Of a stretch of 64,000 bases of DNA, positions 31,633-60,540 are shown in pieces. Numbering within the stretch: position 1 is the first letter of the stretch; each line of letters opens with the position of its first letter. The notes beneath the pieces are model-generated. The model saw only the letters and a list, made by a program, of their open reading frames with translations. It had not been told where the DNA came from and searched no databases. The position numbers and the translations under genes were made by a program. Where the stretch lies: positions 1,082,620 to 1,146,619 of the forward strand of contig NC_091135.1 in the NCBI RefSeq assembly GCF_041381155.1. The letters run 5' to 3'. The stretch is from Argopecten irradians. Taxonomy: Eukaryota > Mollusca > Bivalvia > Pectinida > Pectinidae.

Positions 31633-34600
31633 GATGAAGACCTGTATCAAATAGTGATTGCTCAGTGACACCTCTGACACACGACACGTCTGTACCAAAT
31701 AGTGACTGCACAGTGACATCTCTGAAACACAATACGTCTGTACCAAATAGTGACTGCAAAGTGACATCTCTGACACACAATACGTCTGTACCAAATAGTG
31801 ACTGCACATTGACACCTCTGACACACGACACGTCTGTACCAAATAGTGACTGCACAGTGACACCTTTGACACACGACACGTCTGTACCAAATAGTGACTG
31901 CACAGTGACACCTGACATACGACATGTCTGTACCAAATAGTGACTGCACAGTGACATCTCTGACACACAATACGTCTGTACCAAATAGTGACTGCACATT
32001 GACACCTCTGACGCACGACACGTCTGTACCAAATAGTGACTGCACAGTGACACCTTTGACACACGACAAGTCTGTACCAAATAGAGACTGCACAGTGAAA
32101 TCTCTGACAAATATTACGTCTGTACCAAATACTGACTGCACAGTGACATCTCTGACAAATATTACGTCTGTACCAAATAGTGACTGCACAGTGACACCTC
32201 TGACACACGACATGTCTGTACCAAATAGTGACTGCACAGTGACATCTCTGACACACGACACGTCTGTACCAAATAGTGACTGCACAGTGACACCTCTGAC
32301 ACACGACACGTCTGTACCAAATAGTGACTGCACAGTGACACCTCTGACATACGACACGTCTGTACCAAATAGTGACTGCACAGTGACACCTCTGACACAC
32401 GACACGTCTGTACCAAATAGTGACTGCACAGTGACACCTCTGACACACGACACGTCTGTACCAAATAGTGACTGCACAGTGACACCTCTGACACACGACA
32501 CGTCTGTACCAAATAGTGACTGCACAGTAACATCTCTGACACACGACACGTCTGTACCAAATAGTGACTGCACAATGACACCTCTGACACACGACATGTC
32601 TGTACCAAATAGTAACTGTACAGTGACACCTCTGACACATGACACGTCTGTACCAAATAGTGACTGCACAGTGACACCTCTGACACACGACACGTCTGTA
32701 CCAAATAGTGACTGCACAGTGACACCTCTGACACACGACATGTCTGTACCAAATAGTGACTGTACAGTGACACCTCTGACACACGACACGTCTGTACCAA
32801 ATAGTGTACAGTGACAATTATGACACATGACACGTCTGTACCAAATAGTGACTGCATAGTGACACCTCTGACACACGACACGTCTGTACCAAATATTGAC
32901 CTCACAGTGACACCTCTGGCGCACGACATATCTGTACCAAATATTGACTGTACAGTGACACCTCTGACGCACGACACGTCTGTACCAAATATTGACTGCT
33001 CAGTGACACCTCTGATACACGACACGTCTGTACCAAATAGTGAATGTACAGTAACACCACTGAAATACGACATGTCTGTACCAAATAGTGACTGTACAGT
33101 GACACCTCCGACACACGACACGTCTGTACCAAATAGTGACTGTACAGTGACACCTCCGACACACGACACGTCTGTACCAAATATTGACTGCTCAGTGACA
33201 CCTCTGACACACGACATGTCTGTACCAAATAGTGACTGTACAGTGACACATCTGACACACGATACATCTTTACCAAAAAGTGACTGCACAGTGACATATA
33301 TGAAACAGGACACGTCTGTACCAAATAGTGACTGCACAGTGACACCTCTGACACACGACACGTCTGTACCAAATATTGACTGCACAGTGACACCTCTGAC
33401 ACAAGACATGTCTGTACCAAATAGTGACTGTACAGTGACATATCTGACACACGATACGTCTGTACCAAATAGTGATTTTACAGTGACACCTCTGACACAC
33501 GACACGTCTTTACCAAAAAGTGACTGCACAGTGACATATATGAAACACGACACGTCTTTACCAAATATTGACTGTACAGTGACACCTATATGACACACGA
33601 CACGTCTCTACCAAATAGTGACTGCACAGTGACACCTCTGACACACGACACGTCTGTACCAAATAGTGACTGTACAGTGACACCTCTGACACACGACACG
33701 TCTGTACCAAATAGTGACTGCACAGTGACACCTCTGACACACGACACGTCTGTACCAAATAGTGACTGCACAGTGACATCTCTGACACACGACACGTCTG
33801 TACCAAATAGTGACTGCACAGTGACACCTCTGACACACGACATGTCTGTACCAAATAGTGACTGTACAGTGACACCTCTGACACACGACATGTCTGTACC
33901 AAATAGTGACTGCACAGTGACACCTCTGACACACGACACGTCTTTACCAAAAAGTGACTGCACAGTGACACCTCTGAAACACGACACGTCTGTACCAAAT
34001 AGTGACTGCACAGTGACACCTCTGACACACGACACGTCTGTACCAAATATTGACTGTACAGTGACACCTCTGACACATGACACGTCTGTACCAAATAGTG
34101 ACTGCACAGTGACACCTCTGACACACGACACGTCTGTACCAAATAGTGACTGCACAGTGACACCTCTGACACACGACACGTCTCTACCAAATATAGCTGA
34201 ACAGTGCACATTGACACATCGACATCGACACGTCTGTAACCATATAGTGGCTGACAGTGACACCTCTGACACACGACACGTCTGTACCAAATAGTGACTG
34301 CACAGTGACACCTCTGACACACGACACGTCTGTACCAAATAGTGACTGCACAGTGACACCTCTGACACACGACACGTCTGTACCAAATAGTGACTGCACA
34401 TTGACATCTCTGACACACGACCCGTCTGTACCAAAAAGAGACTGCACAGTGACACCTTTGACACAAGACATGTCTGTACCAAATAGTGACTGTACAGTGA
34501 CACCTCTGACACACGACACGTCTGTACCAAAAAGTGACTGCACAGTGACATATATGAAACATGACACGTCTGTACCAAATATTGACTGTACAGTGACACC

Positions 34601-37600
34601 TCTGACACACGACACGTCTGTACCAAATAGTGACTGCACAGTGACACCTTTGACACACGACACGTCTGTACCAAATAGTGACTGCACAGTGACACCTCTG
34701 ACACACGACACGTCTGTACCAAATAGTGACTGCACAGTGACACCTCTGACACACGACACGTCTGTACCAAATAGTGACTGCACAGTGACACCTCTGACAC
34801 ACGACACGTCTGTACCAAATAGTGACTGCACAGTGACACCTCTGACACACGACACGTCTGTACCAAATAGTGACTGCACAGTGACACCTCTGACACACGA
34901 CACGTCTGTACCAAATAGTGACTCACATGAATCTCTGACAACACGACACGTCTGTACCAAATGTGACTGCACAGTGACACCTCTGACACAAGCACGACGT
35001 CTGTACCAAATAGTGCACAGTGACACATCTCTGACACACGACACGTCTGTACCAAATAGTGACTGCACAGTGACATCTCTGACACAACGACACGTCTGTA
35101 CCAAATAGTGACTGCACAGTGACACCTCTGACACACGACACGTCTGTACCAAATAGTGACTGCACAGTGACACCTCTGACACATGACACGTCTGTACCAA
35201 ATAGTGACTGCACAGTGACATCTCTGACACACGACACGTCTGTACCAAATAGTGACTGCACAGTGACACCTCTGACACACGACACGTCTGTACCAAATAG
35301 TGACTGCACAGTGACATCTCTGACACACGACACGTCTGTACCAAATATTGACTGCACAGTGACACCTCTGACAAATATTACGTCTGTACCAAATAGTGAC
35401 TGCACAGTGACACCTCTGACACACGACATGTCTGTACCAAATAGTGACTGCACAGTGACATCTCTGACACACGACACGTCTGTACCAAATAGTGACTGCA
35501 CAGTGACACCTCTGACACACGACACGTCTGTACCAAATAGTGACTGTACAGTGACACCTCTGACACACGACACGTCTGTACCAAATAGTGACTGCACAGT
35601 GACATCTCTGACACACGACACGTCTCTGTACCAAATAAGTGACTGAACATGACACCTTTAACACATGACACATCAGTGTGCCAAATGGTGACTGCACAAT
35701 GATATCTCTGACACATAATATTTGTACCAGATAGTGACAGCACAGTGACACATTTGACACACGACACGTCTCTGCCAAATAGTGACTGCACAGCGACATC
35801 TCTGACACACAATACGTTTGTACCAAAAATTGACTGCACAGTGACACCTCTGACAAATATTACGTCTGTACCAAATAGTGACTGCACAGTGACACCTCTG
35901 ACACACGACATGTCTGTACCAAATAGTGACTGCACAATGACATCTCTGAAACACGACCCGTCTGTACCAAAAAGAGACTGCACAGTGACACCTTTGACAC
36001 AAGACATGTCTGTACCAAATAGTGACTGTACAGTGACACATCTGACACACGATACATCTTTACCAAAACGTGACTGCACAGTGACATATATGAAACAGGA
36101 CACGTCTGTTCCAAATAGTGACTGCACATCGACACCTTTGACACACGACACGTCTGTACCAAATATTGACTTTACAGTGACACCTCTGACACATGACACA
36201 TCTTTACCAAAAAGTGACTGCACAGTGACGTATCTGAAACATGACACGTCTGTACCAAATAGTGACTGAACAGTGACACCTCTGACACACGACACGTCTC
36301 TACCAAATAGTGACTGAACAGTGACACCTTTGACACACGACACGTCTCTACCAAATAGTGACTGAACAGTGACACCTTTGACACACGACACGTCTCTACC
36401 AAATAGTGACTGCACAGTGACACCTCTGACACATATACGTCTTTACCAAAAAGTGACTGCACAGTGACACCTCTGACACACGACATGTCTGTACCAAATA
36501 GTGACTGCACAGTGACACCTCTGACACACGACACGTCTGTACCAAATAGTGACTGCACAGTGACACCTTTGACACACGACACGTCTGTACCAAATAGTGA
36601 CTGCACAGTGACATCTCTGACACACGACACGTCTGTACCAAATAGTGACTGCACATTGACACCTCTGACACATGACATGTCTGTACCAAATAGTGACTGC
36701 ACAGTGACATCTCTGACACAGACATGTCTGTACCAAATAGTGACTGCACAGTGGCACCTCTGACACAGACACGTCTGTACCAAATAGTGACTGCACAGTG
36801 ACACCTCTGACACACGACACGTCTGTACCAAATAGTGACTGCACAGTTGACACAAGTGACTGCACATTGACATCTGACACACGACACGTCTGTACAAATA
36901 GTGACTGCACAGTGACACCTCTGAACAGGACACGTCTGTACCAAATAGTGACTGCACATTGACACCTCTGACACACGACATGTCTGTACCAAATAGTGAC
37001 TGCACAGTGACACCTCTGACACACGACACGTCTGTACCAAATAGTGACTGTACAGTGACATCTCTGACACACGACACGTCTGTACCAAATAGTGACTGCA
37101 CAGTGACACTCTCTGACACACGACACGTCTCTACCAAATAGTGACTGCACAGTGACACCTCTGACACACGACACGTCTGTACCAAAAAGTGACTGAACAG
37201 TGACATCTCTGAAACAAGGCACGTCTGTACCAAATAGTGACTGCACAGTGACACTCTGACACACATACTAGTCTGTACCAAATAGTGACTGCACAGTGAC
37301 ACCTTTGACACACGACACGTCTCTGCCAAATAGTGACTGCACAGTGACATCTCTGACACACAATACGTTTGTACCAAATAGTGACTGCACAGTGACACCT
37401 CTGACACAATATTACGTCTGTACCAAATAGTGACTGCACAGTGACACCTCTGACACACGACATGTCTGTACCAAAAATAGTGACTGCACATGACATCTCT
37501 GACACACGATACGTCTGTACCAAATAGTGACTGCACAGTGACACCTCTGACACACGACATGTCTGTACCAAATAGTGACTGCACAGTGACACCTCTGACA

Positions 37601-39352
37601 CACGACACGTCTGTACCAAATAGTGACTGCACAGTGACACCTCTGACACACGACACGTCTGTACCAAATAGTGACTGCACAGTGACACCTTTGAGACAAG
37701 ACATGTCTGTACCAAATAGCGACTGTACAGTGACACATCTGACACACGACACATCTTTACCAAAAAGTGACTGCACAGTGACATATCTGAAACATGACAC
37801 GTCTGTACCAAATAGTGACTGTACAGTGACACCTCTGACACACGACACGTCTCTACCAAATAGTGACTGCTACAGTGACACCTTTGACACACGACACGTC
37901 TGTGCCAAATAGTGACTGCACAGTGACACCTCTGACACACGACACGTTTGTACCAAATAGTGACTGCACAGTGACACCTCTGACACACGACACGTCTGTA
38001 CCAAATAGTGACTGCACATTGACATCTCTGACACAAACCGTCTTCATACCAAATCTGACTGCACAGTGACACCTCTGACACACGACACGTCTGTAACCAA
38101 ATAGTGACTGCACAGTGACACATCTGACACACGACACGTCTGTACCAAATAGTGACTGCACAGTGACATCTCTGACACACGATACGTCTGTACCAAATAG
38201 TGACTGCACATTGACACCTCTGACACATGACATGTCTGTACCAAATAATTACTGCACAGTGACATCTCTGACACAAGACAAGTCTTACCAAATAGTGACT
38301 GCACGGTGGCACCTCCGACACACGGCACGTCTGTACCAAAAAGTGACTACACATTGACACCTCTGATATACGACACGTCTGTACCAAAAAGTGACTGTAC
38401 AGTGACATCTCTGAAACAAGGCACGTCTTTACCAAATAGTGACTGCACATTGACATATCTGAAACACGACATGTCTGTACCAAATTATGACTGCATAGTG
38501 ACACCTCTGATACATGACACGTCTGTACCAAATAGTGACTGTACAATAACATCTCTGACACACGACACGTCTGTACCAAATAGTGACTGCACAGTGACAC
38601 CTCTGACACATCGACACGTCTGTACCAAATAGTGACTCACAGTGACACCTCTGATACACGACACGTCTGTAGCAAAAAGTGACTGTACAGTGACATCTCT
38701 GAAACAAGACACTTCTGTACCAAATAGTGACTGCACAGTGACACCTCTGACACACGACACGTCTCCTACCAAATAGTGACTGCACAGTGACACCTCTAAC
38801 ACACGACACGTCTGTACCAAATAGTGACTGCACAGTGACATCTCTGACACACGACGATACGTCTGTACCAAATAGTGACTGCACATTGACACCTCTGACA
38901 CACGACATGTCTGTACCAAATAGTGACTGCACAGTGACATCTCTGACACACGACACGTCTGTACCAAATAAGTGACTGCACAGTGACACCTCTGACAACG
39001 ATACGTCTGTACCAAATAGTGACTGCACATTGACACCTCTGACACACGACACGTCTGTACCAAATAGTGACTGCACAGTGACACCTCTGACACACGACAC
39101 GTCTGTACCAAATAGTGACTGTACAGTGACATCTCTGACACACGACACGTCTGTACCAAATAGTGACTGCACAGTGACATCTCTGACACACGACACGTCT
39201 GTACCAAATAGTGACTGCACAATGACACCTCTGACACACGACATGTCTGTACCAAATAGTGACTGTACAGTGACACCTCTGACACATGACACGTCTGTAC
39301 CAAATATTGACTGCACAGTGACACCTCTGATACACGACACGTCTGTACCAAA
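31633..39352. repeat. 48-bp satellite array, about 160 copies
   Basis: The consensus is CCTCTGACACACGACACG, TCTGTACCAAATAGTGAC, TGCACAGTGACA (48 bp). Because 48 is 16 codons and the monomer has few stops, long frames occur on both strands (up to 756 codons at 33586-35856, minus). The plus strand gives SVPNSDCTVTPLTHDT per unit and the minus strand gives GTDVSCVRGVTVQSLF. Many frames overlap, the longest ones change frame at indels, and common variants (ACG to ATG, CCT to TCT, AGT to ATT) change amino acids. I therefore read it as a non-coding satellite. Variant monomers with TTACCAAAAAGTGAC followed by TATATGAAAC recur in pairs (33260, 33515, 34530, 36060, 36205, 37755), which indicates spread by unequal exchange. 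Confidence 0.93.
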
Positions 39353-41900
39353 GTTCGCGAGATTGTAGATCGCATGATCTAGGCCGTATGAGGATTCGTT
39401 GGGGAATGGGTTAATGTCGCCTGGTTAATTTTCAGTTTTGGCGGGGTGTAAATCAAATATGTGATTGGGGTTGCTTAAGTGACCGAGTAGTACTGAAGCC
39501 GGTGTTGTGGTACAGGGGGCGTCGTTTTGCTCCGACGTGTACGATGTAATGCGTGTCGGGTGGTATAGTTTTAGATGAGGGGTTGGTTGGTAAATGGGTA
39601 GGTGTGCTGCTGGGACGGTTAGGTGTCGCATAAGTTAGAGGGTGAATTTTACTACAATGGCTTGGGGGCGCGCTAATCATGGCGATTGGTTATAAGAGAG
39701 TTTAGTGTGTGTAGTTGTTCTGGTTTTTTTGAGGTATGTAAAGTATAGACGTATGTTATGCTTGTTTGTTATCCATGTTTATATAGATTTAATGATCGGG
39801 GGTTTAGGTTTGTTCTGTAGGGGCTGGCCGGATGTAAATAACTGATGCGATCTTTCCCCTTTTGTCTATATCTTTAAGGCTTATGCTTACAGTCAAGCTC
39901 ATATTGGTGCAGGTAACAAGTTGGTTGACGGCTGTGGTGGCTGGTTGCTTCCTGTTTCATAGTACTGTTATTTTGTTATAATTTTTAGCATATCAAAGCC
40001 ACGACCGAAGTAGTAAATGTGATCGTTAATATTGTAGTGGCTACAGTGTGTGATAAGTAGGGAATGGGGTGACATGGGGGGTGTCGTGGGTAGTTATGAA
40101 CAAGATGTGTCTCGTTGGTTCGGTTATGTTCTTCGTGTTATTTTTGCGGGGTGATGTTTGGGAGTTGTAAGTATTTTAACACGATCTTTAGACCTAAGAG
40201 TGGGTGTCCGCGTGAACAGCGCAGAAGTGTTTAATGTGAAGATAACAATGTCTTCACATTTTTAGTGACCCTTATCATCTTGGACAAAAAGGACCATAAT
40301 TATTTTGAGTGCTTATAAGTAGATTATTTTTTATCTACAAAATTGTATTATTGTCGGTATGTCGTTAAACATACACAAAAATAATAAAGATAAGTTGGAG
40401 TTTTGATTGGGTGCTTGGAGGGTTTGAAGGAAGTCTAGCTATAGATGGATGAATGTTGAGTGTCTAACCGTGTTCGGGAGGCAAGTTGGAAACGGCTCTG
40501 AACTCTGAGTTGAGCGACCGTTATAACCTAAGGACGCGCGAATGTTGTTGATGGGGTTTTATTTATATTTTATTTGTAGTATATATTTTTTTTTTTTTTC
40601 TTAATCCTCTATTCCTTTATTTTTTTTTGAAATTATATTCTTTCTTCGGGGTGTTATAGTTAGGTTGTTTGTTGTTGCCGCGGGGAACGATGTGGAATGT
40701 GAGGGATCGGAGTGGCTGGATTATCAGGTCGGTTAGGTAATGTGGTGCCTGTAGTTTGTTGTAGTAGGGGTGTCGGGTCACAGATTTCTGTAGTCGGGCT
40801 TGGCACTGTCGTATGGAAATCATTCTATATGAGTCAGCTCCAATCTAGCCGTTAAGAAAAAGCCCCCCCCCCTCAAGAACCTCTCTAAAAACAGCTCCCC
40901 CACTCTACCTTTCAGTGATATCCCATTGATATGCACAATATTAGCCTAGTCAACCAAATCGTCCCCCCCTACAAGAGATCTTGACTCGTCAGGTCTGCGT
41001 AATCCCCTAAGTGATGATCGATATCCCCACCAGTAAGGACGAAATATATCAATTAGAACCTGAAATCCACCGTCATCGTGCTTAGAGTAATATGTTAAAC
41101 CCCCACCCACCGCGGTGGCGGCGCGTCCTAGGCCGGCTCCAATTCGTTACTGACACCAAGGGAGAAACGTGGTCATTATTTAAACCAACAATAGTGACTC
41201 TTCTGCTGCACGGGATGAGGGTTAGTTCGAGGGGAGCTAGGTACATCACCTACCGACCACACCAGGAACGTTACCTGCCCACTAAGTGATGTTAGGTATG
41301 ACTGGTTCAAGGATGCCGTGTATCTGAGTCCGTGTGTGAGGAAAGCACCATAGTTGTTTACTCTTACTTGTAACAATTTGTGGACGGGTGCTGGGGTAGC
41401 TCTACTCAACATTTGTTAGTATGGCGTGTTCAAGGAAATATAGACGGCGTCTGAAAATACAGCGACTCACGGACCCGACCGGCACGTACTGTAGAAAACA
41501 AAAAAAAAGGGTGTAGGTGGTCGTAATGTGTCAGAGTGGTTGGTTTCGGCTAGGTTGACGGGACTGACCGCTCCAGCTAGACATCCTGCCCTCTATGTGC
41601 AACTATAGGTCGAAGTATAGTAGCGTTTAGGATGTTCGCGAGACGGTACAGGCGTACGGCTTGTGAAGGAAGTAGTGAAACGCTAGTCTTTGCCTGGCCG
41701 CTCATAACCTTGCTCTCACTTGCTTACCTAGCCTCGCACCTAGCGCAGTGAGATATCCCTGTTAGTTTGATGGTTATAGGGTAGGGAAGGGGGACGTGTG
41801 GGATGCGTCTGGAAAGAAGATGGGTGACCGGATCTTAAGATACCAACATAGATTGATAGGATATGATGTGCTTTTCTTGTCTGCACAAATATGAACTCAG
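39353..41900. other. unassigned block with shifting base composition
   Basis: After the 48-bp array the sequence becomes G/T-rich on this strand (about 39370-40160, 40400-40800), then C/G-rich with runs of C near 40864 and 40960, then mixed. No gene, known repeat or domain is visible. It does not resemble the AT-rich background elsewhere. CCACCGCGGTGGCGGC at about 41107 and GCTCCAATTCG at about 41137 recall cloning-vector polylinker sequence, but the surroundings do not match a vector. Confidence 0.45.
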
Positions 41901-43490
41901 CCTTTACCTTTTTACAAACTCCCAGTAGACTGTGTGTTTTTACTATGACCCTTTACCTTTTTACAAACTCCCAGTAGACTGTGTAGTTTTTTTTACTATG
42001 ACCCTTTACCTTTTTACAAACTCCCAGTAGACTGTGTGTTTTTACTATGACCCTTTACCTTTTTACAAACTCCCAGTAGACTGTGTGTTTTTACTATGAC
42101 CCTTTACCTTTTTACAAACTCCCAGTAGACTGTGTGTTTTTACTATGACCCTTTACCTTTTTACAAACTCCCAGTAGACTGTGTGTGTTTTTACTATGAC
42201 CCTTTACCTTTTTACAAACTCCCAGTAGACTGTGTGTTTTTACTATGACCCTTTACCTTTTTACAAACTCCCAGTAGACTGTGTGTTTTTACTATGACCC
42301 TTTACCTTTTTACAAACTCCCAGTAGACTGTGTGTTTTTACTATGACCCTTTACCTTTTTACAAACTCCCAGTAGACTGTGTGTTTTTACTATGACCCTT
42401 TACCTTTTTTACAAACTCCCAGTAGACTGTGTGTTTTTTACTATGACCCTTTACCTTTTTACAAACTCCCAGTAGACTGTGTGTTTTTACTATGACCCTT
42501 TACCTTTTTACAAACTCCCAGTAGACTGTGTGTTTTTACTATGACCCTTTACCTTTTTACAAACTCCCAGTAGACTGTTTTTTACTATGACCCTTTACCT
42601 TTTTACAAACTCCCAGTAGACTGTGTGTTTTTACTATGACCCTTTACCTTTTTACAAACTCCCAGTAGACTGTGTGTTTTTACTATGACCCTTTACCTTT
42701 TTACAAACTCCCAGTAGACTGTGTGTTTTTACTATGACCCTTTACCTTTTTATAAACTCCCAGTAGACTGTGTGTGTTTTTACTATGACCCTTTACCTTT
42801 TTACAAACTCCAGTAGACTGTGTGTTTTTACTATGACCCTTTACCTTTTTACAAACTCCCAGTAGACTGTGTGACCTTTACTTTTACAACTTAGACTGTG
42901 TGTTTTTGCTATGACCCTGTACCTTTTTTACAAACTCCCAGTAGACTGTGTGTTTTTACTATGACCCTTTACTTTTTTTACAAACTCCCAGTAGACTGTG
43001 TGTTTTTGCTATGACCCTTTACCTTTTTACAAACTCCCAGTAGACTGTGTGTTTTTTACTATGACCCTTTACCTTTTTACAAACTCCCAGTAGACTGTGT
43101 GTTTTTGCTATGATCCTTTACCTTTTTACAAACTCCCAGTAGACTGTGTTTTTACTATGACCCTTTACCTTTTTACAAACTCCCAGTAGACTGTGTGTTT
43201 TTACTATGACCCTTTACCTTTTTACAAACTCCCAGTAGACTGTGTTTTTACTATGACCCTTTACCTTTTTACAAACTCCCAGTAGACTGTGTTTTTTACT
43301 ATGACCCTTTACCTTTTTACAAACTCCCAGTAGACTGTGTGTTTTACTATGACCCTTTACCTTTTTACAAACTCCCAGTAGACTGTGTGTTTTTTACTAT
43401 GACCCTTTACCTTTTTACAAACTCCCAGTAGACTGTGTGTTTTTACTATGACCCTTTACCTTTTTACAAACTCCCAGTAGACTGTGTGTG
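41901..43490. repeat. 49-bp minisatellite adjoining the last visible exon of the host gene
   Basis: About 32 head-to-tail copies of a 49-bp unit: CCTTTACCTTTTTACAAACT, CCCAGTAGACTGTGTG, TTTTTACTATGAC. Most copies are identical apart from one or two bases in the T-run and GT dinucleotides; a few near 42870-42900 are shortened. On the minus strand each copy reads ACACAG, TCTACTGGGAGTTTGTAAAAAG, GTAAAGG. That is the end of the exon at 43460-43605 with its splice donor. The first unit, at the gene side, is the exon end itself. Confidence 0.93.
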
Positions 43491-43605
43491 ACTGCTTTTC
43501 TTTCCCTAATAGGGCATGAATCATGCTGAGATAGTACACAAGTTGGGGGTCAGAGGGTAGAAAATTCCCCCATGAGTGATTTGGCTTCTTCCAACCATTC
43601 TCTCC
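43460..43605 (-). CDS. exon 6 of the TPR-like host gene, with a one-base frame slip
   Basis: The acceptor is TTTTTCTACTTTCAG. In the phase set by exon 5 the frame reads REWLEEAKSLMGEF and then meets TGA at 43552-43550. In the neighbouring frame the protein goes on as LPSDPQLVYYLSMIHALLGK to the exon end. One T too many in the TTTT run near 43565 would explain this; it may be a read error or a real mutation. The exon ends AAAAAG followed by GTAAAGG, the donor that is repeated in the minisatellite. Confidence 0.65.
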
Positions 43606-46600
43606 CTGAAAGTAGAAAAATACAAGGTATTGTTTAACAATATATATCATTTAGTGCTTCTAATATAATTCCCAGTCTATAGCAGTACATAATTATGTAG
43701 TAGACATTATTTGATTCACTCGGTGCCCAAATTTTTAATGTTGCCATTCTTTCTTCTTTTGTCATCTTTTTTTTTATATAAATACCCAAGACATTCCATT
43801 AATAATTTAAAACATGTATAAGCACAATGTAATTCTGACATTAGGTGTGTTTATAAGCAATAATTCATTGTGTCCCAAAAAAATTCTTTGGTACTATATG
43901 TCCAATATAGAATGAAGTTCTGATTGTGCATGTATCGACAGCAAAACAAACTATTTAATATCATTTTTGTGTTAATTAGACATATATATATATATATACA
44001 TTATTAAACACCAACTCTTGTTAAAAAGATGAGTATTGTTTATGTTCTGTTGGCGGGGGAGCATCTTTAATGAATCTCGCATCCAGCTATAATCATAACA
44101 AGAGGCCCAGAGGGCCTGTATCGCTCACCTGTTTTTTTTTGTTTTTTGTAATTATCACAAAGACTCTATCAATTAGAAAAATTAGTAAAATTGACTCAAA
44201 AATTTGTTTAATTTTGAATCACAACCATACAATGATACTATAGATACCATACAAATATGCTATCCAATACAAAGGTTCAGAGAGGAAGTAATTTATATGA
44301 AAATAGTAGCCTAATTGACCTTTTTGGCCCCGTGTCTAAGGCCCCAGGGAGTCAGCACTATACTTTGCCATACCGTTTAATTTTAAATCCCCATCCTATA
44401 AGGATGTTACTATTGCATTATGAGTGCTCTTCCATGCTGAGTTGCAGAGAAGAAGTCGTTCATATAATAACAGCAAAAATTGCTCTATTTCGACCCCGCC
44501 CCTCAGCCACCGGGGGGTCAGCCCTATCATTTGCACAATTTTGAATCCTCACCCTATAAGGATGCTACCATTGCATTATGGGTGCTATATTTATATATCA
44601 CATGCTTAGTTGCAGAGAAGAAGTCATTTATATTGAAATAGCCAAATTGACCCCTTTTGACCCCACCCCTCAGGCCCCTAGGGGGTCAGCCCCATCATTT
44701 GTACAGTTTTGAATCCCAACCCTATAACGATGCTACCATTGCATTATGAGTGCTATCCCATGCTTAGTTTCAGAGGAGAAGTCGTTTATATATGGAAAAG
44801 CCAAATTGACCCCTTTTGACCCCGCCCCTCAGGCCCCCGGGGGGTCAGCCCCATCATTTGTACAATTTTGAATCCCCATCCTATAAAGATGCTACAATTG
44901 CATTATGGATGCTATTCCATGCTTAGTTTCAGAGAAGAAGTCGTTTATATGGAAATAGCCAAATTGACCCCTTTTGACTCCGCCCCTCAGGCCCCAAGGG
45001 GGTCAGCCCCATCATTTGTACAATCTTGAATCCCCACCCTATAAGGATGCTACAATTGCATTATGGATGCTATTCCATGCTTAGTTTCAGAGAAGAAGTT
45101 GTTTAAATGGAAATAGCCAAATTGACCACTTTTGACCCCGCCCCTCAGGCCCCCAAGGGGGTCAGCCCCATCATTTGTACAATTTCCATTTAGTAGCCCA
45201 TAAGGATGCTACCAGTTTAAATTTTGTTGAAATCCGACCAGCGGTTATGGAGAAGAAGTCGATTGAATTGTGACGGACGGCACGGACGGACGGACGATGG
45301 ATGTTACGGACGCCACGGTATGGCATAAGCTCACCCTTGGTCCTTCAGACCAGAAGATCATAAAAATCCAAAATGGCTGACCAATAAAGATAAAAAAATG
45401 TCCCGACTTATTGGATACAAGGGAAATCGATGCATGAAAGACATATTTACCCTCAAGTGATCCACAATGTGTACAAAGATAAACATCCATGATATGTCTC
45501 TCAAGTCCGTCCACCTTCGTACGATACCTGTTGGTCCAGACATTCTTCCATGCTTGTCTTGAATAACTCCCTTTTTGGATAGACAAGATCCTGACAAAAT
45601 AAATAAAACATGTATAGTGGACATCAGTCAAGAAGTTTTGTTGAAATCCCTGCCATTGTTTAGGAGGAGTAGTCAGTCGATTTTTAATACAGATAATTTT
45701 TCCCCTTTTATGTTTTGGGAAGGAGGATAAATCATCTTTTTAACAGCATTTACCATTTATAGATATCAATAACCCCAAAAAGTCCCTCCACAAACTAATA
45801 TATTAAAACAATGAATACGGGATCAAGGTTGACCTATACCGGTGTTGTACAGAAAACACATCCGGTGTACTGGGAAGTAAAAACCTGGAATATTATCCGT
45901 GATTACAGGTTTGAATGTCGAAGAAATTCCTCAACTCAACTTATAGTAGAACTACATACAGGTAGCACTTGGCGACTACCCCACAAACATTGTCAGCGAC
46001 TAATCGTTGAATGCATTACACTTGTAATAAATAGCGGAACATCGGGCAATCAAAAATGTGTCTCCATAGAGGACTAGAAGTTTATTAATTGAGTAAAAAA
46101 TATTGTACAACTCTTTGTTATCAAAATCTATAGTTAGTGGCTGATATTTGTCCAAACTCACCCCTGGTCATTCAGATTGGCGACCAACATCAGCATGTTT
46201 GTGGTAATATCGTCGGCCTCGTTACTGTTCTTGCCGTCCTTCAGTAGACTATCACATGACAGCCTGTAGAATTTGGCTGCCCTCTCCACAGCGCCGATCT
46301 GAGCATGCATCCGGCCCACCTCATTCAAGTACACAGCCTTCAGGATTTCTGTAAGAAAGATTCAAACAATACGATACACAATAACTAACATTATGACGTC
46401 TAAGCAATCATAGCATTCGATGGTATCTTTATGGCAATCAGTCAAATATTTCTTTAGTGCAGAGAAACACACAGTCTCACCTTTTGTTGTATTCTGTGAA
46501 AGTGACATGAAGTACTCTGTAGCCATGTTGATGTCCCCTCTCGCCCACAGAGCGTATGGCACAGCATCATCAAAACAGTACGACACCATGGACGGAAACC

Positions 46601-48945
46601 TAAAAAGTTAATCAAGATCAACGTAAAATATCCAAGGAAGAACATCTGAGTCAGGGTAAAGTTCCTTCAACAATGTCGCGAAGTCATACTTGCAGCAACC
46701 CATCCATCTCCATCAGACATGGGACAACAAGAAGTTATTATATATACACAGATGGTCTTTATACTGCAGAGGTGGTCAGTGGGGCAGCTTTTACCATATT
46801 TACCTTTTCTTCATTGCAGATTTCAGTCTAGCAACCACACTTCTGGTTGCCCTGGTGATTCTGTCATCTTCACTCTCAGACTGGTGTCTGAAGGCGTTAT
46901 CCGATAAAAATGGCGGCATCATCAGAGCTAAAGAGGCAGTCACCACTGTCAACATCAACAACAAAGTAAAATCAGGGTCAAAAAGGGCACCTTCACTTAA
47001 TTAATTTGGGGACATGACTTTTCAGGGTCATAAAACGATGTGCCAAGAGGCCAAGAGGGCATGTATCACTCATCTGACTTGTTATGCATTGCAAAGGAAT
47101 GTTCTAAGTACAGGGTAAGTATTTCCTCTTGGATTTCTAACGTTTATACCTTTAATTCCCTTTCTCCTCAGGATGTTTCTTGCCAATTTTAGTTAAAATC
47201 TGTTTAAAACTTGACTTTGACTAGTAGGGATTTATACAAATTTTCTCAATTTCACCTCAGTGGGCCCTGCATATTGCTCTTACATAATGTACCCTGGAGA
47301 AGTCAGAGCCAAGATTTTTACAAACTCTGTTCCCTTTGCCCTAAGTATAAGCTTAGTTTACCCAAATTTGGTTACAATCTAAGCAGAACTCCATGAATAT
47401 ATAAAAAAAATGTTGATTGATGGACAGATAGATGATGACTGAACATTCATTTAAAGATGATCCACCGCCGACAGAGCATAAATGATATTCATCATTTGAA
47501 CAATAATTGGTGTTTAATCTTGTATATATATATGTCTAATTAACACAAAAAATAATATTAAATAATTTATTTTGCCTTTGCATTGGTGCATGCACAATCA
47601 GTACTTCATTCCATATAGGAATGGATATAGTGCCACGAAATTTTTTCGGGATGCAATTAATTATTTTTCATATTTTCAACTTGAAGTAAAATTAAAAGCT
47701 CAAACTTTTCAATGGTGGTAATTGTGTAAAGTAACTTTTGTAATTGAAGAAAAATACTAGATCAACTGCTCCTGTTTTTGAAAGTGAAAAAATTTAAATA
47801 TATATATGATATATTTAACCACAGGAGTTTGACGTTCTGTCAATAATATATAGTACAAATATATAAAAAAATACCCCTTTTGGGTGTTTTTATATAGTAT
47901 ATAGGGGTATTTTTTTATATATATTTGTACTATATATTATTGACAGAACGTCAAACTCCTGTGATTTAACCCTGGTCTTACCTGCCCATGTAGTCATTGT
48001 TCGTCTTTCCTCTAAAGACAATATCCTTTCCATATAGGTATACTGTAGTGTAGCTAGCGGATCCGCATTCTTATCCTCGCTCTCATGATTCACACTGTAC
48101 ACCCGTCTCTGGACATCTCTAACAATGTGTAATAACTCTGGTTTATCACCGCTGGACAAACAGGCTTTAGCAAAGTTTGCTTCAAAACGTGCCATCGTCG
48201 AATGCAACCAGGACAACTGCATTTTTTGTACAGAGAAATCCTTATCTGGGTAGAAGAGTTGTTTTATTTTGTTTGGAAGTTCTGGCATTGATTTTAAGTT
48301 GATTTTATACGATGATTTAATACAAAGTTGAACAAGTGAAGGAACATTTTTACAAATGTCTACAGTTTTGTCAACTAAAGTTCGATCTGACAGCATATGC
48401 ACAATATCATCTAACTCTTCCTCCATGAAGGGGCGGATATGGTTTTCATACATTGTGCATATTTCTTTACGACGTTTTTTCTTCTGCTTTTTACTAAGTC
48501 TTTGTCTTACATTTGAAAAGCTTTTACTCAAACTGGAGTTTTCATCTGTAAACACTAAATCTTCATCATCTTCACTTTCATTCCTTGGCGTGCAAGTAAT
48601 GGGTACATCATGCTTTCCTTCACTTCTAACCGGCCCACTCGCGCTTTCACCAGTAACAGACTCTGAATCGGAAACCAACAATTCTTCGGCTGAAAAGAAC
48701 TCATCTTCAGAACCACTGAAACTCTCAACAGACAAATTTGACAAGTCAAGATCTACATCATTTTCCTCTCCAAAATCTTGAGTTGTCTCCCCTGATTGTT
48801 GTTTTGACCGACGTCTCCTCCGTTTTTGTACAGTTACAAGTTTTGTTTGGTCAGCATCGTTAAACTCCCAAGAAATCATACGAGCATAAGATTGTCGCTG
48901 GCTTCTCTGAACAATAAGTGCCTTTAGACCCTCGTCTTCATCCAT
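43460..48945 (-). CDS. spliced host gene, TPR-like protein of unknown family (six exons, 3' end not found)
   Basis: Exons are 48945-47982, 46945-46804, 46599-46481, 46348-46162, 45590-45451 and 43605-43460. All visible donors start GT, acceptors end AG, and phases agree at all five junctions. The start ATG at 48945 has a good context (AACATGG). Residues 1-150 are acidic and Ser-rich with KRRRRRSK and KKQKKKRRK stretches, possible nuclear signals. Residues about 160-320 are helical; a segment near LVQLCIKSSYKINLK faintly recalls a SOCS box. Later exons give TPR-like helices, for example YLNEVGRMHAQIGAVERAAK and DPQLVYYLSMIHALLGK. The last visible exon holds a one-base frame slip and ends at a donor inside the minisatellite; later exons were not found. 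Function and family are unknown to me. The gene structure is well supported, the biology is not. Confidence 0.82.
43815..44090 (-). repeat. interspersed repeat copy (intron 5)
   Basis: The minus strand of this stretch matches 47441-47665: GGTGTTTAAT, TATATATGTCTAATTAACAC, CATGCACAATCAG, ACTTCATTC. Both copies adjoin a GGCCC-type repeat. A (TA)n run lies at 43982-43998. Confidence 0.65.
44098..45355 (+). repeat. bivalve-type interspersed repeat with six internal units of about 158 bp (intron 5)
   Basis: It begins AACAAGAGGCCCAGAGGGCC and TGTATCGCTCACCTG and ends with GGACGGACGGACG, GTATGGCATAAGCTCACC. The middle (about 44230-45190) holds about six units of 157-160 bp, each with TTGACCCCTTTTGACCCC, CCTCAGGCCCC and AAGGATGCTACCATTG. 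I remember this start and end from high-copy bivalve repeats. It lies in the intron between exons 5 and 6 and does not disturb the splice sites. Confidence 0.75.
45451..45590 (-). CDS. exon 5 of the TPR-like host gene
   Basis: The 140-bp exon has a strong acceptor (TTTATTTATTTTGTCAG region) and donor GAGG followed by GTAAAT. It carries 46 full codons, ending HIMDVYLCTHCGSLE. Phases fit exon 4 and exon 6. Confidence 0.8.
45631..46141. other. intron 4 of the host gene, no further feature
   Basis: The stretch contains an 88-codon plus-strand frame at 45811-46077 without domain or splice context. I see nothing else. Confidence 0.5.
46162..46348 (-). CDS. exon 4 of the TPR-like host gene
   Basis: The 187-bp exon lies between acceptor TCTTTCTTACAG and donor GGG followed by GTGAGT. 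It carries 61 full codons. GRMHAQIGAVERAAKFYRLS matches the Gly/Ala/Tyr spacing of a TPR motif. Base composition is clearly more GC-rich than the surrounding introns. Confidence 0.82.
46481..46599 (-). CDS. exon 3 of the TPR-like host gene
   Basis: The 119-bp exon lies between acceptor GATTAACTTTTTAG and donor AAAAG followed by GTGAGA. It carries 39 full codons with phases that fit both neighbours. AVPYALWARGDINMATEYF looks like a TPR helix pair. Confidence 0.8.
46804..46945 (-). CDS. exon 2 of the TPR-like host gene
   Basis: The 142-bp exon has acceptor TGTTGATGTTGACAG and donor AAAAG followed by GTAAAT. Its two leading bases complete the codon left by exon 1. It encodes 46 full codons, including PPFLSDNAFRHQSESEDDR and a basic helix. 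The plus-strand frames at 46690-47004 are shadows. Confidence 0.75.
47040..47440 (+). repeat. diverged GGCC-type interspersed repeat (intron 1)
   Basis: It starts GAGGCCAAGAGGGCATGTATCACTCATCTG, a diverged form of the start at 44098, and ends with a GATGGACAGATAGATGATG run resembling the GGACGG end of that family. The middle differs from the 44-45 kb copy. Confidence 0.6.
47441..47665 (+). repeat. interspersed repeat, inverted partner of 43815-44090
   Basis: It shares TGGTGTTTAATCTTGTATAT, GTCTAATTAACACAAAAA and GCATGCACAATCAG with the copy at 43815-44090, in the opposite orientation. AAAGATGATCCACCGCCGAC marks its start. Confidence 0.65.
47820..47963. mobile_element. palindromic MITE in intron 1, 13 bp from the exon 1 donor
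   Basis: The arms start CACAGGAGTTTGACGTTCTG and are nearly perfect inverted copies of about 60 bp, with one 2-bp difference. ATTTAACC (47813-47820 and 47964-47971) stands at both borders, a target duplication of 7-8 bp that fits hAT-type MITEs. The related, longer copy is at 49012-49448. Confidence 0.82.
47982..48945 (-). CDS. exon 1 of the TPR-like host gene
   Basis: This 964-bp exon holds the start codon, 321 codons and one further base. It ends at GGGCAG followed by GTAAGA, a near-consensus donor at 47981-47976. The open frame continues to 47890 only because it reads into the adjacent MITE. It encodes the acidic, basic-patch and helical N-terminal part. Plus-strand frames over it are shadows. 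Confidence 0.85.
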
Positions 48946-49883: not shown

Positions 49884-49934
49884 TATATTTTCTTTTCACC
49901 TGTGTAGAGGGATTTGACTTGGTCGATCATCGGT

Positions 49935-50008
49935 GACCAGGTAGCTCAGACGGTAGAGCACTCGGCTTGTGTTCGGGGGGTCCCGTGTTCCAATCCTGGT
50001 CTGGCCGC
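49935..50008 (+). repeat. tRNA-like sequence, copy 2
   Basis: Same layout as copy 1, with D-arm GTAGCTCAGACGGTAGAGC. The T-arm is damaged (GTGTTCCAATCC). The apparent loop CTTGTGT would give anticodon TGT, but the arm is weak and the reading uncertain. Confidence 0.6.
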
Positions 50009-50140
50009 TACATTTTCTCTTCTCCCGTTACAAAATTGGCGCCTAACTAAATAACCCATGGTGGTGGTGTTTGGAAGGGTCTCGTGTCTTCGAGAAAGGA
50101 GGGAGGAGCATAGCAGGATTGGACTGGGTCGATCATCGGT

Positions 50141-50222
50141 GACCAGGTAGCTCAGTGGGTACTCGGTAGAGCACTCGGCTAGTGTTCGGAAGGTCCCGGG
50201 TTCGAAATCCCGGCCTGGCCGC
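50141..50222 (+). repeat. tRNA-like sequence, copy 3
   Basis: Same layout, with a short internal duplication in the D-loop (CTCAGTGGGTACTCGGTAG) and T-arm GGGTTCGAAATCCCGG. The D-loop insertion and the extra A in the T-loop make a functional tRNA unlikely. Confidence 0.6.
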
Positions 50223-50239
50223 TACATTTTCTCCTCTCC

Positions 50240-53200
50240 TGTTACACCTGTTACATTATAACATTTACAATTTGTACATGTCCACCTTCAACAGTCTGAA
50301 GTTTAATATGACACGGACGTAGATAAGATTAGACAGTTGGACAGGAATAAGTGTGTATCTGTGTATAAAAGTGTTTGTGTGTGGAGTGTGCACATTTTGT
50401 GTACATTTTTAAATTTTAAGACACTTTTATGAGCTTATGCTTATAATACTAAAATTCGAAGCGCCGGTGATTAAAAATTTACCAAACCTGTATTTGTTTA
50501 CTTCACAAACTGGCCGATATATTTGACAGAAATTGTTGTATTCAAACCCGGCTAACTTGTTTTAGTCTATTGATAAGTAATTTGTTCAAGCTGGATGTAA
50601 TTTTTTATTACATTAATATTATAGGAATCGAATGTATGATTACAGGAGAAGACATAAACTCGTTGAATTGCATTGAGGTAAACCTACATCATCCTTAGTG
50701 TGGAATTGATATGCCTAGGTAATCTCAGTTTGTTAGAAAATCGGAAGCAAAGGGTGCCCGGAGATTTAGTGTTTTAAGCATAAATAGCAAAGACCCGCAT
50801 TCCGTTTTAAGTAAATATTGGAAAGTGGATTAGGAAGTTATCTCTGAGTAATGTTCCGTGGTATGGTAATACAAGAAGTACTCTTCACGAAATACGACGA
50901 GTTTTGAAACTAGATAATTGAAAAATGCAAATTTATAAAGAGCGTGTGTCCATGTTTTAAATTGAAATATTATATGTTTTCCGTTTACCCTATAGTGGTA
51001 AAAGCATTGCACTTGTGAACTTTTGATAATTCAACTAGTTATTGGCAAATTTAAAAACAATCGACATTTAAAGCGAGCCATTCTATAAACAATCTGGTCC
51101 TAGCTTTGCAGGATCCGATTGCATTGCCAAACTCAAAGGTTGATAGTATTGGCATAGTCACTACAGTTTATACACGATATTTTGTTATTTGGTGCCATCA
51201 AGCAATAACAAATTCTGATATAAATCTTCTCCAGATAACATTTTTCTCTATAAAACCGATTATTTAACAAGCAGCTTCACAATAAACCATAAGTCAACTG
51301 TTCGAGCCTTAGCAATATACCATAATTAATGAAATATTCTGAACTGTTCCCATAATATTCAATCAGTACTTTACTTACAATGGCAAGGGTGAACAAAGTA
51401 TTGAGTGGTTAAACCCGTGATTACCAACACTTATATGAACGATTAAAAATTTTTACCACTCTTTCCCTAGCTTGTAAGTGTGTAATATGATTTACCGTAC
51501 CGTTTTATCCAACTTCTGAGTGTTATAGTAACCAACAATTTCGGTGTACCGTATAAATTTATGATTTTATACAAAAGGTATTCCATAAAAGAAGGAAATT
51601 TCTTTTAGAATGTAAACTTAAAGTTACAATAAAAAACATAGACTCTGTTGTTCGGTTTATTCCTTGGCAACGCATTGTAACTTTGGATTTTACCCTGACG
51701 ATTAATCCTTCTATGCATCAATTTTTCATTAAATACTAGGAATTTAAGGAAGTTGAGTGCAATGTGTAAATTACTTAAACGTTGGTTGAACCAATGTTGG
51801 AATGTATTTTAAATGCTTGCACATGGCCCAGATGTTTACCAGAACTTTACTGATTTCCTTGTTTACAACTTTAATATCAGGTTAACGAGCGATAAATTCA
51901 ATGCAGTATTTTGTATTTAAGTGTTAAATGAATCGATACCTCTAGATTGGTTGATACCGTTAATTACATATTAAATGAAATTAAACGGAATTTTATGATG
52001 AAAATTTCAGCGGATTTGCCTCAACTAGAAATTTTACGACTATTTTAAACAAAAATTGGATACTGTTAACAGAGCAGTTATTGTATATTTAACTCCTAAA
52101 TTTTGTACAAAGCTAATTCAGACCTTTTAACTGCTAAATTCAACGATATTTACTGCATATAATTGAATCGTACCTCAGGTATTGTGTATACAAATAATCG
52201 TATACATTTTCAACGTGATATTTTTTAATTTTTTCTTAACTTAATATCAACAGATTGACTAAGAGTGCATTATTGTTATTTATTCTGATCAGACATAGTT
52301 GATTTGGAGGATACACTCATAAGCCATACCCGAGTTTTATAAATAAATTTTAGGATTAAAGCCATATATTGACGTAAAACTGAATACATTACAATTATGG
52401 GGTTAGTTTTCTATTAGGATTTGGCAATACGTGTAATCTTGAATTACATACGGGTTACTAGGTGGTTTGAAAGTTTTCCGACAAAAATGGAATTAATGTT
52501 AACTGAACATAATTGGAAAGGAGACGTGGGGTACCTAGAAAATTTTTTTACAATTGGATTATAGGAACTGTCGATTTATAGTTAACGTAATTCATGATTT
52601 TAGTAACTTATTATTATGTCAATACGTTACATGTTTATAAACATACTGGCCATACGAGTCGATGGTACAGTTTTCCTTTATTTAATATATATCCACCATT
52701 TTAGAAATTTTATGATCCTTTTACGAAATGATCTGTTATAGAAGGATGGAATAAAATTGACGAATTTTTCAATTAAAAATTTCTGAAATACAACTTAACA
52801 TTGAACACGCATTTTTAAAATTAGGAACGACTATTAGATTGGGTGACGTTCATTAACTTGAATAAGCGAGTCCTCCGATAACAGTTTATTTACTACTAAA
52901 ACGCCACACAACTTCAGACCCCGATTCCGAATTAAAATTGAGGTGAATTGGACACGAAAAGCGTATAAATATAAACTTCATTTAAGGTGTTCCATAATTA
53001 GTTATATATATCTAATGTGCAAGATCTTTTCCTGCATGTATATTAGATCCATGCTACTGTAAAGTTCCAAATTTTACTCACGAGATTTTTTTATCTCTAA
53101 ACATGTTTCATTATCGGATTACTGGGTATTATGGTCAGTTAAGTTAACATTACAACTCGGTATTGTAGGTATTGACTGGTGATGGCCCGATATTGCAAAA

Positions 53201-54026: not shown

Positions 54027-55870
54027 AGTTCCTAGTTTCCGTTTAATAAACGGAACTGAACCTAGACCCAGGAAAACTCAGAGCATTCCGTTAACTTAAA
54101 CGGAACTAGGAACTTTTTTTTCCGTTTAAGCTTATACGGAACTAGGAACCAGACCCAAGTTCCGTTTAACAAAAGTACTGGCCAACGAGCCGAGTTCCGT
54201 TTATTAGGATTTATACCTCTAATTGAATGTTCAATTACATATTATATATCGGAATCGAACTCTAAGCTTTCAGCAGCGATTACGACACAGAATTAATCTC
54301 TATAACACAGATTTTCTTACACGAGATCTGACACCTAGACCTCAGTTCCGTTTAACTTAAACGGAACCAGGAACCAGACCCGAGTTCCGTTTAAGCTTAT
54401 ACGGAACTAGGAACCAGACCCGAGTTCCGTTTAACAAAAACTAGGCCAAACGAGCAGACCGTTCCGTTTTATTAGTTCCGATTATAACCTCTAATTAGAA
54501 TGTTCAACGAGCCGAGTTCCCGTATTATTAAGTTTTACGGAATCGAACTCTGGCTTTCAGCGCGATACGACACAGAATTAAGTCTCTATAACCACTGAGA
54601 TTTCCATAAAAATGTTTCTGAACACCTAGACCTCAGTACGTATAACTTAAACGGAACCAGGAACCAGACCCGAGTTCCGTTTAAATACGGAAACTAGGAA
54701 CCAGACAACGAGTTCCGTTTAACAAAAAGAACTCGGGCCAACAGCCGAGTTCCGTTTATTATGGGGGGGATTTTCTACCCATCTTATTGAATGTTCAATT
54801 ACATTATTATATATCGGAATCGAACTCTAGAGCTTTCAGCCAGCAATATACGACACAGAATTAATCTCTATAACACAATTTCCTTAAAACGGATCTGACA
54901 CCTAGACCTCAGTTCCGTTTAACTTAAACGGAACCAGGAACCAGAAACGAGTTCCGTTTAAGCTTATACGGAACTAGGAACCAGACCCGAGTTCCGTTTA
55001 ACAAAAGTACTGGCCAACGAGCCGAGTTCCGTTTATTAGGATTTCTACCTCTAATTGAATGTTCAATTACATATTATATATCGGAATCGAACTCTGAGCT
55101 TTCAGCAGCGATACGACACAGAATTAATCTCTATAACACAGATTTTCTTAACGGATTCTGACACCTAGACTTAAACGGATCATACCTCAGTTCCGTTTAA
55201 CTTAAACGGAACCAGGAACCATACCCGAGTTCCGTTTAAAGCTTATACGGAACTAGGAACCAGACCCGAGTTCCGTTTATACAAACAAGTACTATGGCCA
55301 ACGAGCCGAGTTCCGTTTATTAGGATTTCTACCTACCTAATTTGAAAATGTTCAATTACATATTATATATCGGAATCGAACTCTGATCTTTCAGCAGCGA
55401 TACGACACAGAATTAATCTCTATAACACAGATTTTCTTAAACGAATCTGACACCTAGACCTCAGTTCCGTTTAAATTAATCGGAACCAGGAACCAGAACC
55501 CGAGTTTCCGTATTACGCTTATACGGAACTTAGGAACCAAGACCCGAGTTCCGTTTAACAAAAAGTACAGGCCAACGACCGAGTTCCGTTTTATAGATTT
55601 TTCCTAATTGAATGTTCAATTACATATTATATATCGGAATCACGAACTCTGAGCTTTCAGCATCGAAACGACACATAATTAAATCTCATATAACACAATT
55701 TTCTTAAACGGATCTGACACCATAAACCTCATTTTCCGTTTAACTTAAACGGAACCAGGTACCAGACCCTAGTCCGTTAGAAACGTTATAGCGGAACTAG
55801 GGGAACCAACCTCGAGTTCCGATTAAGCTAATTAACTGAACTAGGAACCAGACCTGAGTTCCGTATATAA
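54027..55870 (-). repeat. palindrome-rich satellite, left arm
   Basis: About six units of roughly 290-340 bp follow one another. Each contains GTTCCGTTTAACTTAAACGG, GGAACCAGACCCGAG, GGCCAACGAGCCGAG, TGAATGTTCAATTACAT and GAATCGAACTCTGAGC. The same units occur at 61640-64000 in the opposite orientation. Small indels are frequent here, much more so than in the right arm. The strand sign is set relative to the right arm. Confidence 0.85.
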
Positions 55871-57300: not shown

Positions 57301-57365
57301 TTGAAAAACCTCAATTTCTTTACAGTAATACGCTACTGTAACTTTAGTATGCGAATTTGTCTTTC

Positions 57366-60300: not shown

Positions 60301-60540
60301 AGAAGGGACCACGTCTGACATTGACGAGTAATGACACCTTCAAAGAAGCCAATCCTCTCAATGTCCTGTTCAGGGCAGAAGTTTTCAAGTTTATATATGA
60401 CATTCTGGATGGAGAGACGCAACAGCCTCTCCATCGTGTGGTGCTCCTTGGAGCCGAACACTACCTGGTTCATTGACCAAGTTTCCAGAGTTCAACACTC
60501 AAGCTTAGCAGGCAAAGAGGACGGCAGTCTATCGTGTATT
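57366..60540 (-). mobile_element. DIRS-like tyrosine-recombinase retroelement, decayed
   Basis: Read on the minus strand, the parts come in the order expected for DIRS-type elements. A basic, gag-like region lies at about 60540-60025. A reverse transcriptase segment lies at about 59900-59640, with EELRTMLLKGAVEEVP and GFYSRIILIRK. The end of an RNase H domain lies at about 59080-58780, with KHLPGSANVLADN. A tyrosine-recombinase-like region lies at about 58750-57366, with AHEVRALATSLALRN. The copy is clearly broken, with many breaks (of the order of ten or more), so it is a fossil. Terminal repeats could not be identified. It is enclosed by the two oppositely oriented satellite arms. Confidence 0.72.

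What the first reader, a model, noticed from the sequence alone, without database searches (positions are those of the whole stretch)
41901..43605. Minisatellite seeded by a coding exon end: about 32 tandem copies of a splice donor
On the minus strand the exon at 43605-43460 ends TACTGGGAGTTTGTAAAAAG followed by GTAAAGG. The next 1.6 kb repeats exactly this junction about 32 times in 49-bp units. The array therefore multiplies the last 22 exon bases plus the 5' splice site, and each unit also offers ACACAG just before the exon piece. Such a row of identical donors could give variable exon ends or micro-exons of 22 nt, or could slow splicing. The near identity of the units suggests recent expansion or homogenisation. 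I know of no named precedent for this exact arrangement.
Basis: partly seen in the sequence, partly recalled or inferred. Interest (0 to 1): 0.72.

Follow-up and report, generated by a model that had tools for sequence, protein, structure and literature searches.

The report
Tandem repeat grown from exon end

Summary
On the minus strand the exon at 43605-43460 is followed by 32 tandem units of about 49 bp, so its donor is the first of 33 junctions, 30 of them exactly AAG|GTAAAG. A unit is 30 nt of exon end plus 19 nt of intron. The exon is real: distant paralogs end it at the same place and phase, and the closest paralog (C7) has the next exon beyond its own copy of the array. The window copy looks dead or truncated: its exon is frameshifted against that paralog, no next exon was detected in the 41.9 kb downstream, and homology breaks off inside the array. 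Donors in this array are no better kept than the rest, so splice choice or micro-exons find no support. New is the recurrence: other exon ends of this gene family, and 9 of 12 donor-bearing arrays sampled on one chromosome abut what I judge an exon end, two of them (UreF, SLC35F) confirmed by Pfam.

The parts
43460..43605 (-). Coding exon E5 (146 nt) whose 3' end seeded the array
   Evidence: Same exon in paralog C7a as one open frame REWLEEAK...YWEFIKR; homologous end ...FFKTYKQR|GT in two distant paralogs, same phase; the window copy has one extra base near 43557 against C7a and then a stop in that frame
41901..43489 (-). Minisatellite: exon end plus 32 tandem units of about 49 bp (30 nt exon + 19 nt intron in the common unit)
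   Evidence: TRF; unit split
43454..43462 (-). Original 5' splice site AAG|GTAAAG of E5 (G of GT at 43459)
41902..43413 (-). 32 copied donor junctions, G of GT at 43410 down to 41907
41896..41907 (-). Far end of the array: stops inside a unit (GTAAAGG|CTGAG); flank unlike that of the C7 arrays
47983..48945 (-). Exon E1 of the same gene copy (321 codons open)
   Evidence: 92% identical protein at C7:41655962-41656924; 34-37% paralogs at C7:41208040, C7:41199496, C1:65692022; tblastn
46803..46946 (-). Exon E2 (approximate bounds)
   Evidence: identical protein in C7a, 36-39% in C7b and C7c, not found in C1
46482..46598 (-). Exon E3 (approximate bounds)
   Evidence: 87% to C7a, 35-39% to the distant paralogs
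46161..46349 (-). Exon E4 (approximate bounds)
   Evidence: identical protein in C7a, 37-43% in the distant paralogs
45528..45590 (-). Tentative exon E4b (DLVYPKRELFKTSMEECLDQQ); phases with E4 and E5 do not close, so the model between E4 and E5 is incomplete
   Evidence: 95% to C7a; no convincing match in the distant paralogs

Best explanation
The array is a 'mirage': a minisatellite born by local tandem duplication of an exon-intron junction (last 30 nt of exon E5, its 5' splice site, 19 nt of intron), then expanded and partly homogenised, presumably by slippage or unequal exchange. In the paralog that still has later exons (C7a) it lies as intron sequence between E5 and E6, and splicing would normally use the first, original donor (inferred; no RNA). 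The array is older than the duplication that made the three copies, since all three arrays share the unit and the ATAGC/ATAGT variant (shown). The copy in the window is a partial duplicate: it holds E1-E5 plus array, breaks off inside the array, has a frameshifted E5 and no detectable E6 (shown). The extra donors are a neutral by-product (inferred from lack of donor conservation). Exon-end arrays arise again in this genome: at E6 of a paralog (exon supported by homology), at E7 of C7a and C7inv (exon judged by acceptor, phase and open frame), and in unrelated genes (sample).
For: Array and junctions. Exon real, donor position conserved in paralogs. Array lies between E5 and E6 in C7a; E6 found in C7a, C7b, C7c, C1 and C7inv (E 3.6e-7 to 2.8e-19) but not in the window copy: no gene-strand hit downstream of E5 better than E 0.57 with three E6 queries. 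The 49-bp unit was matched only on C2 and C7 (50 matches, a lower bound), so it does not look like a dispersed satellite. C2 against C7a over E1-E4b: dS 0.046, dN 0.030; one-base length difference in E5. Donor positions in the window array are not better kept: 45 of 49 nine-base windows have an equal or lower mismatch rate. Recurrence: C1 paralog E6 end, 57-bp unit, 149 copies; C7a/C7inv E7 end, 57-bp unit; 9 of 12 CAGGTGAGT arrays on C1 start at what I judge an exon end, UreF and SLC35F by Pfam, GLUT by weak PDB hits. Literature.
Against: No transcripts: that E5 is spliced from its first donor is inferred. The frameshift could be an assembly error. dN/dS of about 0.65 with unchanged E2 and E4 proteins leaves some constraint on the C2 copy possible. 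In two other arrays (C1 E6, C7inv E7) the donor nine bases vary less than the rest (0.8% against 4.4%; 1.0% against 3.1%), though 13 of 57 and 18 of 57 windows vary as little or less (99 of about 149 C1 E6 units passed the script's score cut, the rest were dropped). 'Exon end' for the C1 sample was judged by eye from an upstream AG, an open frame and unit-exon identity; Pfam supports 2 of the 8 proteins tried. E7 of C7a gave no BLAST match to its presumed counterparts. Donor motifs are common as single sites too, so no special targeting of donors is shown.
Confidence: 0.85

Rival explanations
1. E5 is the last exon: AGGTAA is its stop codon and the array is 3' untranslated or downstream sequence, not intron.
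For: In C7a the frame ends ...FIKR and then TAA exactly at the junction; in the window copy nothing downstream was detected to splice to.
Against: Two distant paralogs have AG|GTATAC and AG|GTACAT at the same place and phase; a conserved next exon E6 lies beyond the array in C7a and beyond E5 in C7b, C7c and C1. The C1 paralog ends its E5 differently (GGGCAA|GTATAC or nearby).
Confidence: 0.08
2. The row of donors acts in splicing: it gives alternative ends of E5, 22-30-nt micro-exons, a recursive splice ladder, or delays the intron.
For: 30 of 33 junctions keep AAG|GTAAAG, and AG and GT touch in each of these; human minisatellites at exon-intron boundaries can create novel introns and alternative transcripts (PMC2812944, passages).
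Against: Donors are not conserved above the rest of the unit; pyrimidine tracts are poor in the three sites printed and in C7a an in-frame TAA follows the first junction; amphioxus mirages are reported not to disturb regular splicing (PMC3087553, PMC3902484, passages).
Confidence: 0.05
3. The exon resemblance is secondary: a mobile or satellite repeat landed next to the exon and overwrote its end.
For: Minisatellites are very common in this genome.
Against: The 30 nt are coding sequence in the C7a frame and end where distant paralogs end the exon; the unit was matched only on C2 and C7, at these gene copies (a lower bound); other exon ends carry their own, different units.
Confidence: 0.03

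Closest known systems
'Mirages' of amphioxus: tandem duplications of exon-intron boundaries in Adh3, globins BflGb6 and BflGb9, troponin C, PGBD5 (PMC3087553 and PMC3902484, passages read; the Adh3 paper of 2002 is not held, and was not seen)
   Same: Minisatellite-like units spanning an exon-intron boundary, many with AG/GT signals; unit length falls in the 10-72 bp given for Adh3; copy number differs between copies; partly homogenised
   Different: More copies (32 here, 149 in the C1 paralog) than the 6 and 3 units reported for the two haplotypes of BflGb6; genome of 846 Mb of unknown species, larger than amphioxus genomes as I recall them; several cases in one gene family; the window copy is a broken duplicate
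Internal tandem repeats at exon-intron boundaries of human genes in segmental duplications (PMC2812944, abstract and passages)
   Same: Minisatellites at exon-intron boundaries in recently duplicated paralogs
   Different: The human repeats average four 30-bp units and were tied to RNA evidence; here no RNA
Intron gain by tandem duplication (Rogers 1989, as cited in PMC3087553; potato RdRp case PMC4974935, search listing with start of abstract only)
   Same: Tandem copies of an exon piece with splice signals
   Different: There a duplication makes a new intron; here the array lies in an existing intron position and no new intron is shown

Membership tests
Mirage minisatellite | Tandem units that span a real exon-intron boundary | tested here: met
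   30 exon + 19 intron nt in the common unit; boundary supported by paralogs
Mirage minisatellite | Units carry splice signals (AG/GT) | tested here: met
   30 of 33 junctions AAG|GTAAAG
Mirage minisatellite | Copy number unstable | tested here: inconclusive
   33, 13 and 12 junctions in the C2, C7a and C7inv copies; no second individual or haplotype
Mirage minisatellite | Regular splicing not disturbed | not testable with these tools
   No RNA data
Mirage minisatellite | The name was used, in what I read, for cephalochordates only | tested here: inconclusive
   Genome unnamed, 846 Mb, longest contig seen 75.5 Mb; mollusc haemocyanin, COX1 and ELH searches were empty, and none of them settles the phylum
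Intron gain by tandem duplication | A new intron bounded by duplicated AGGT | not tested
   No transcript; the intron position is shared with paralogs that have no array at that exon end
Functional tandem donor array | Donor motif kept better than the rest of the unit | tested here: not met
   Window array: donor nine bases 3.2% mismatch, rest 1.8%, 31 units counted

The most novel reading that the evidence does not exclude
In this animal exon ends are a regular birthplace of minisatellites: hundreds of genes carry mirage arrays, each offering tens to hundreds of copies of a real exon end with its 5' splice site, a standing supply for intron gain, intron sliding and gene breakage inside the arrays, as in the split copies of this gene.
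Probability: 0.55. Interest if true: 0.65.

Novelty: new member of a known kind. Interest (0 to 1): 0.5.

Why it matters
Mirages were proposed, from a few amphioxus genes, as a route to new introns. A genome in which they can be collected by simple pattern search makes that testable: array age, splice choice among identical donors, and the fate of exons next to arrays can be compared across many genes. The arrays also mark duplication breakpoints: two partial copies of this gene break inside the array, one losing the side beyond it and one the side before it.

Tried and rejected
Rejected: terminal exon with TAA stop (paralog donors and E6); dispersed satellite; micro-exons.

Led nowhere: Pfam and PDB for the gene itself (one search gave only hits below the cut-offs, TPR among them), so the gene family has no name here. 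Phylum markers (for 63 and 66 no control genome rang either). Names from recall without support: midasin-like for L048 (nothing in Pfam or PDB), RBM28-like for L047 (nothing in Pfam), NRF6-like for L036 (nothing in Pfam). E7 of C7a did not match its presumed counterparts in C7b, C7c or C1 by BLAST.

Against special targeting of donors: CAGGTGAGT alone occurs 9737 times against 2883 for the reversed control. On C1, 12 donor arrays were listed up to 71.1 Mb, where the list stops, against 2 control arrays on all of C1, one of them beyond that point. Given the single-site ratio, binomial chances of 12 of 14 and 12 of 13 are 0.35 and 0.17: not clearly more than the donors' own abundance gives. Unit-level counts, 15212 against 2416 and 2118 against 306, count large arrays many times. 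That C2 and C7inv are two halves of one split duplicate fits (C2 has E1-E5 plus array, C7inv array plus E6 and E7) but was not proved.

Full report
What is there. On the minus strand a 146-nt exon (43605-43460) ends TACTGGGAGTTTGTAAAAAG|GTAAAGG, and the next 1.55 kb repeats that junction. TRF places the array at 41901-43489 with a 49-bp unit. Cut at its junctions it gives 33 donors: the exon's own and 32 copies. 15 of 32 units are identical; 30 of 33 donors are exactly AAG|GTAAAG. The common unit holds 30 nt of exon and 19 nt of intron.

The gene. The exon belongs to a gene with E1 at 48945-47983 and further exons at about 46946-46803, 46598-46482 and 46349-46161; the model between E4 and E5 is incomplete because phases do not close. 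The window lies at C2:1082620-1146619 of an 846-Mb genome. A close paralog, C7a, lies on C7 (E1 92% identical in protein), and distant paralogs (34-37%) at C7:41208040 (C7b), C7:41199496 (C7c) and C1:65692022. The gene matches no Pfam or PDB entry above threshold.

Is the exon end real? Yes, by comparison. C7b and C7c end the homologous exon ...ALAGEESDAENFFKTYKQR with AG|GT at the same place and phase as ...ALLGKEKQSHTVYWEFVKR in the window. No TRF array (period 20 or more, 4 copies or more) touches that exon end in them; in C7c an unrelated array of 142-bp period starts about 0.3 kb further on. The C1 paralog ends the exon a little differently. A conserved next exon, E6 (...LPPIRRIRLNPYTG), lies 2.6-2.8 kb beyond E5 in C7a, past its array, and is found in C7b, C7c and C1 as well. 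So the array of C7a lies in the E5-E6 intron, and most simply it arose after C7a split from C7b/C7c and before C7a split from the window copy.

State of the window copy. E6 was not detected in the 41.9 kb downstream: with three E6 queries no gene-strand hit there was better than E 0.57. E5 differs from C7a by one base in length, which puts a stop in the frame that C7a and the distant paralogs use; an assembly error is possible. Over E1-E4b synonymous divergence from C7a is 0.046, nonsynonymous 0.030. Homology with C7a stops inside the array. A third array on C7, inverted (C7:41675877-41676490), has the opposite half: array plus E6 and E7, but no E5 in the 25 kb held. Both broken copies break inside the array.

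Function of the extra donors. In C7a an in-frame TAA follows the first junction at once, so later donors could only truncate the protein. In the window array the nine donor bases mismatch the consensus at 3.2%, the rest at 1.8%; 45 of 49 nine-base windows are equal or better kept. In the C1 E6 and C7inv E7 arrays the donor is better kept than average, but 13 of 57 and 18 of 57 windows are at least as well kept; in the C1 56-bp array it is not (34 of 56). The script dropped poorly fitting units: it counted 99 of about 149 for C1 E6. I see no sign of selection on the donors of the window array.

The same thing elsewhere. (a) C1 paralog: the end of E6 with GTGAGT is repeated 149 times in a 57-bp unit, C1:65718334-65726839. 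A 56-bp array that looks by eye like a diverged relative lies between its E5 and E6. (b) C7a and C7inv: the end of E7 with CAT|GTAAGT is repeated in a 57-bp unit. E7 is called an exon from its acceptor, its phase and its open frame in both copies; it did not match the presumed counterparts in other paralogs by BLAST. (c) Genome-wide: three AGGTRAGT spaced by 25-55 bases occur 15212 times, the reversed motif 2416 times, at unit level. The list begins with two arrays on C1, and I read the start of both: one (C1:2890660-2896884) starts at an exon end by my reading, one does not evidently. With CAGGTGAGT, 12 distinct arrays were listed on C1 up to 71.1 Mb. I fetched the 5' flanks of all 12 and read the last 520 nt of each, more for L037. 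Nine (L037, L039, L040, L041, L042, L043, L045, L047, L048; eight events, since L042 and L043 are near-copies, and their frame is the least clear) show an upstream AG, an open frame and an exon end that equals the unit end; three (L038, L044, L046) do not evidently. Of eight exon translations given to Pfam (seven of these nine, one of them mistyped, and L036) two score above the cut-off: UreF and SLC35F. The L039 exon gave ten PDB hits, all SLC2A transporters, each weak (best E 0.1). Other names are recall.

How far this goes. CAGGTGAGT is itself 3.4 times commoner than its reverse, so exon ends need not be special targets: random seeding of minisatellites in a genome full of them could catch exon ends at about this rate. 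What the sample does show is that exon ends are not spared. The step from one chromosome's sample to hundreds of genes is inference.

Known kind. Amphioxus 'mirages' are tandem duplications of exon-intron boundaries in Adh3, globin, troponin C and PGBD5 genes; they are said not to disturb splicing, and a model of intron gain was built on them (passages of PMC3087553 and PMC3902484). Human minisatellites at exon-intron boundaries in segmental duplications can create introns (abstract and passages of PMC2812944). My searches listed, by title and start of abstract, no other report of such arrays; I opened four papers (the three above and PMC12783039, passages, earthworm metallothionein introns with minisatellites), and the library lacks most subscription journals. 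The species here is not named; size and repeats suggested a bivalve to me, which is recall only, and three marker searches were empty.

Noticed in passing
window 31642-39352: 48-bp tandem array, 160 copies; because 48 is a multiple of 3 it holds long open frames on both strands (up to 757 aa), probably by period alone.
   Followed up: partly
window 21281-24569: 56-bp tandem array, about 58 copies, with ACT|GTGAGT in the consensus; no exon seen by eye in the short flanks read.
   Followed up: partly
C7:41636583-41637367 and C7:41678964-41681000 or beyond: 57-bp array at the end of the presumed exon E7 of the paralog copies, a second mirage in the same gene.
   Followed up: yes
C1:65718334-65726839 and C1:65706428-65712128: 149-copy exon-E6 mirage, and a 102-copy 56-bp array between E5 and E6 of the same paralog that looks like a diverged relative.
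   Followed up: partly
C7:41232323-41235065 (C7b): A 25/50-bp array begins about ten bases inside the intron after the presumed E7 without taking in the exon; in C7c a similar array starts about 0.2 kb away.
   Followed up: partly
window 49900-50250: tRNA-like repeats (ARAGORN calls a tRNA-Thr at 49935-50008), probably SINE copies.
   Followed up: no
window 57300-60500: Open frames that look like a retroelement; only listed.
   Followed up: no
window 61856-64000 and 54337-55279: Nested 39-40-bp repeats with TTAAACGGAAC motifs within larger tandem blocks.
   Followed up: no
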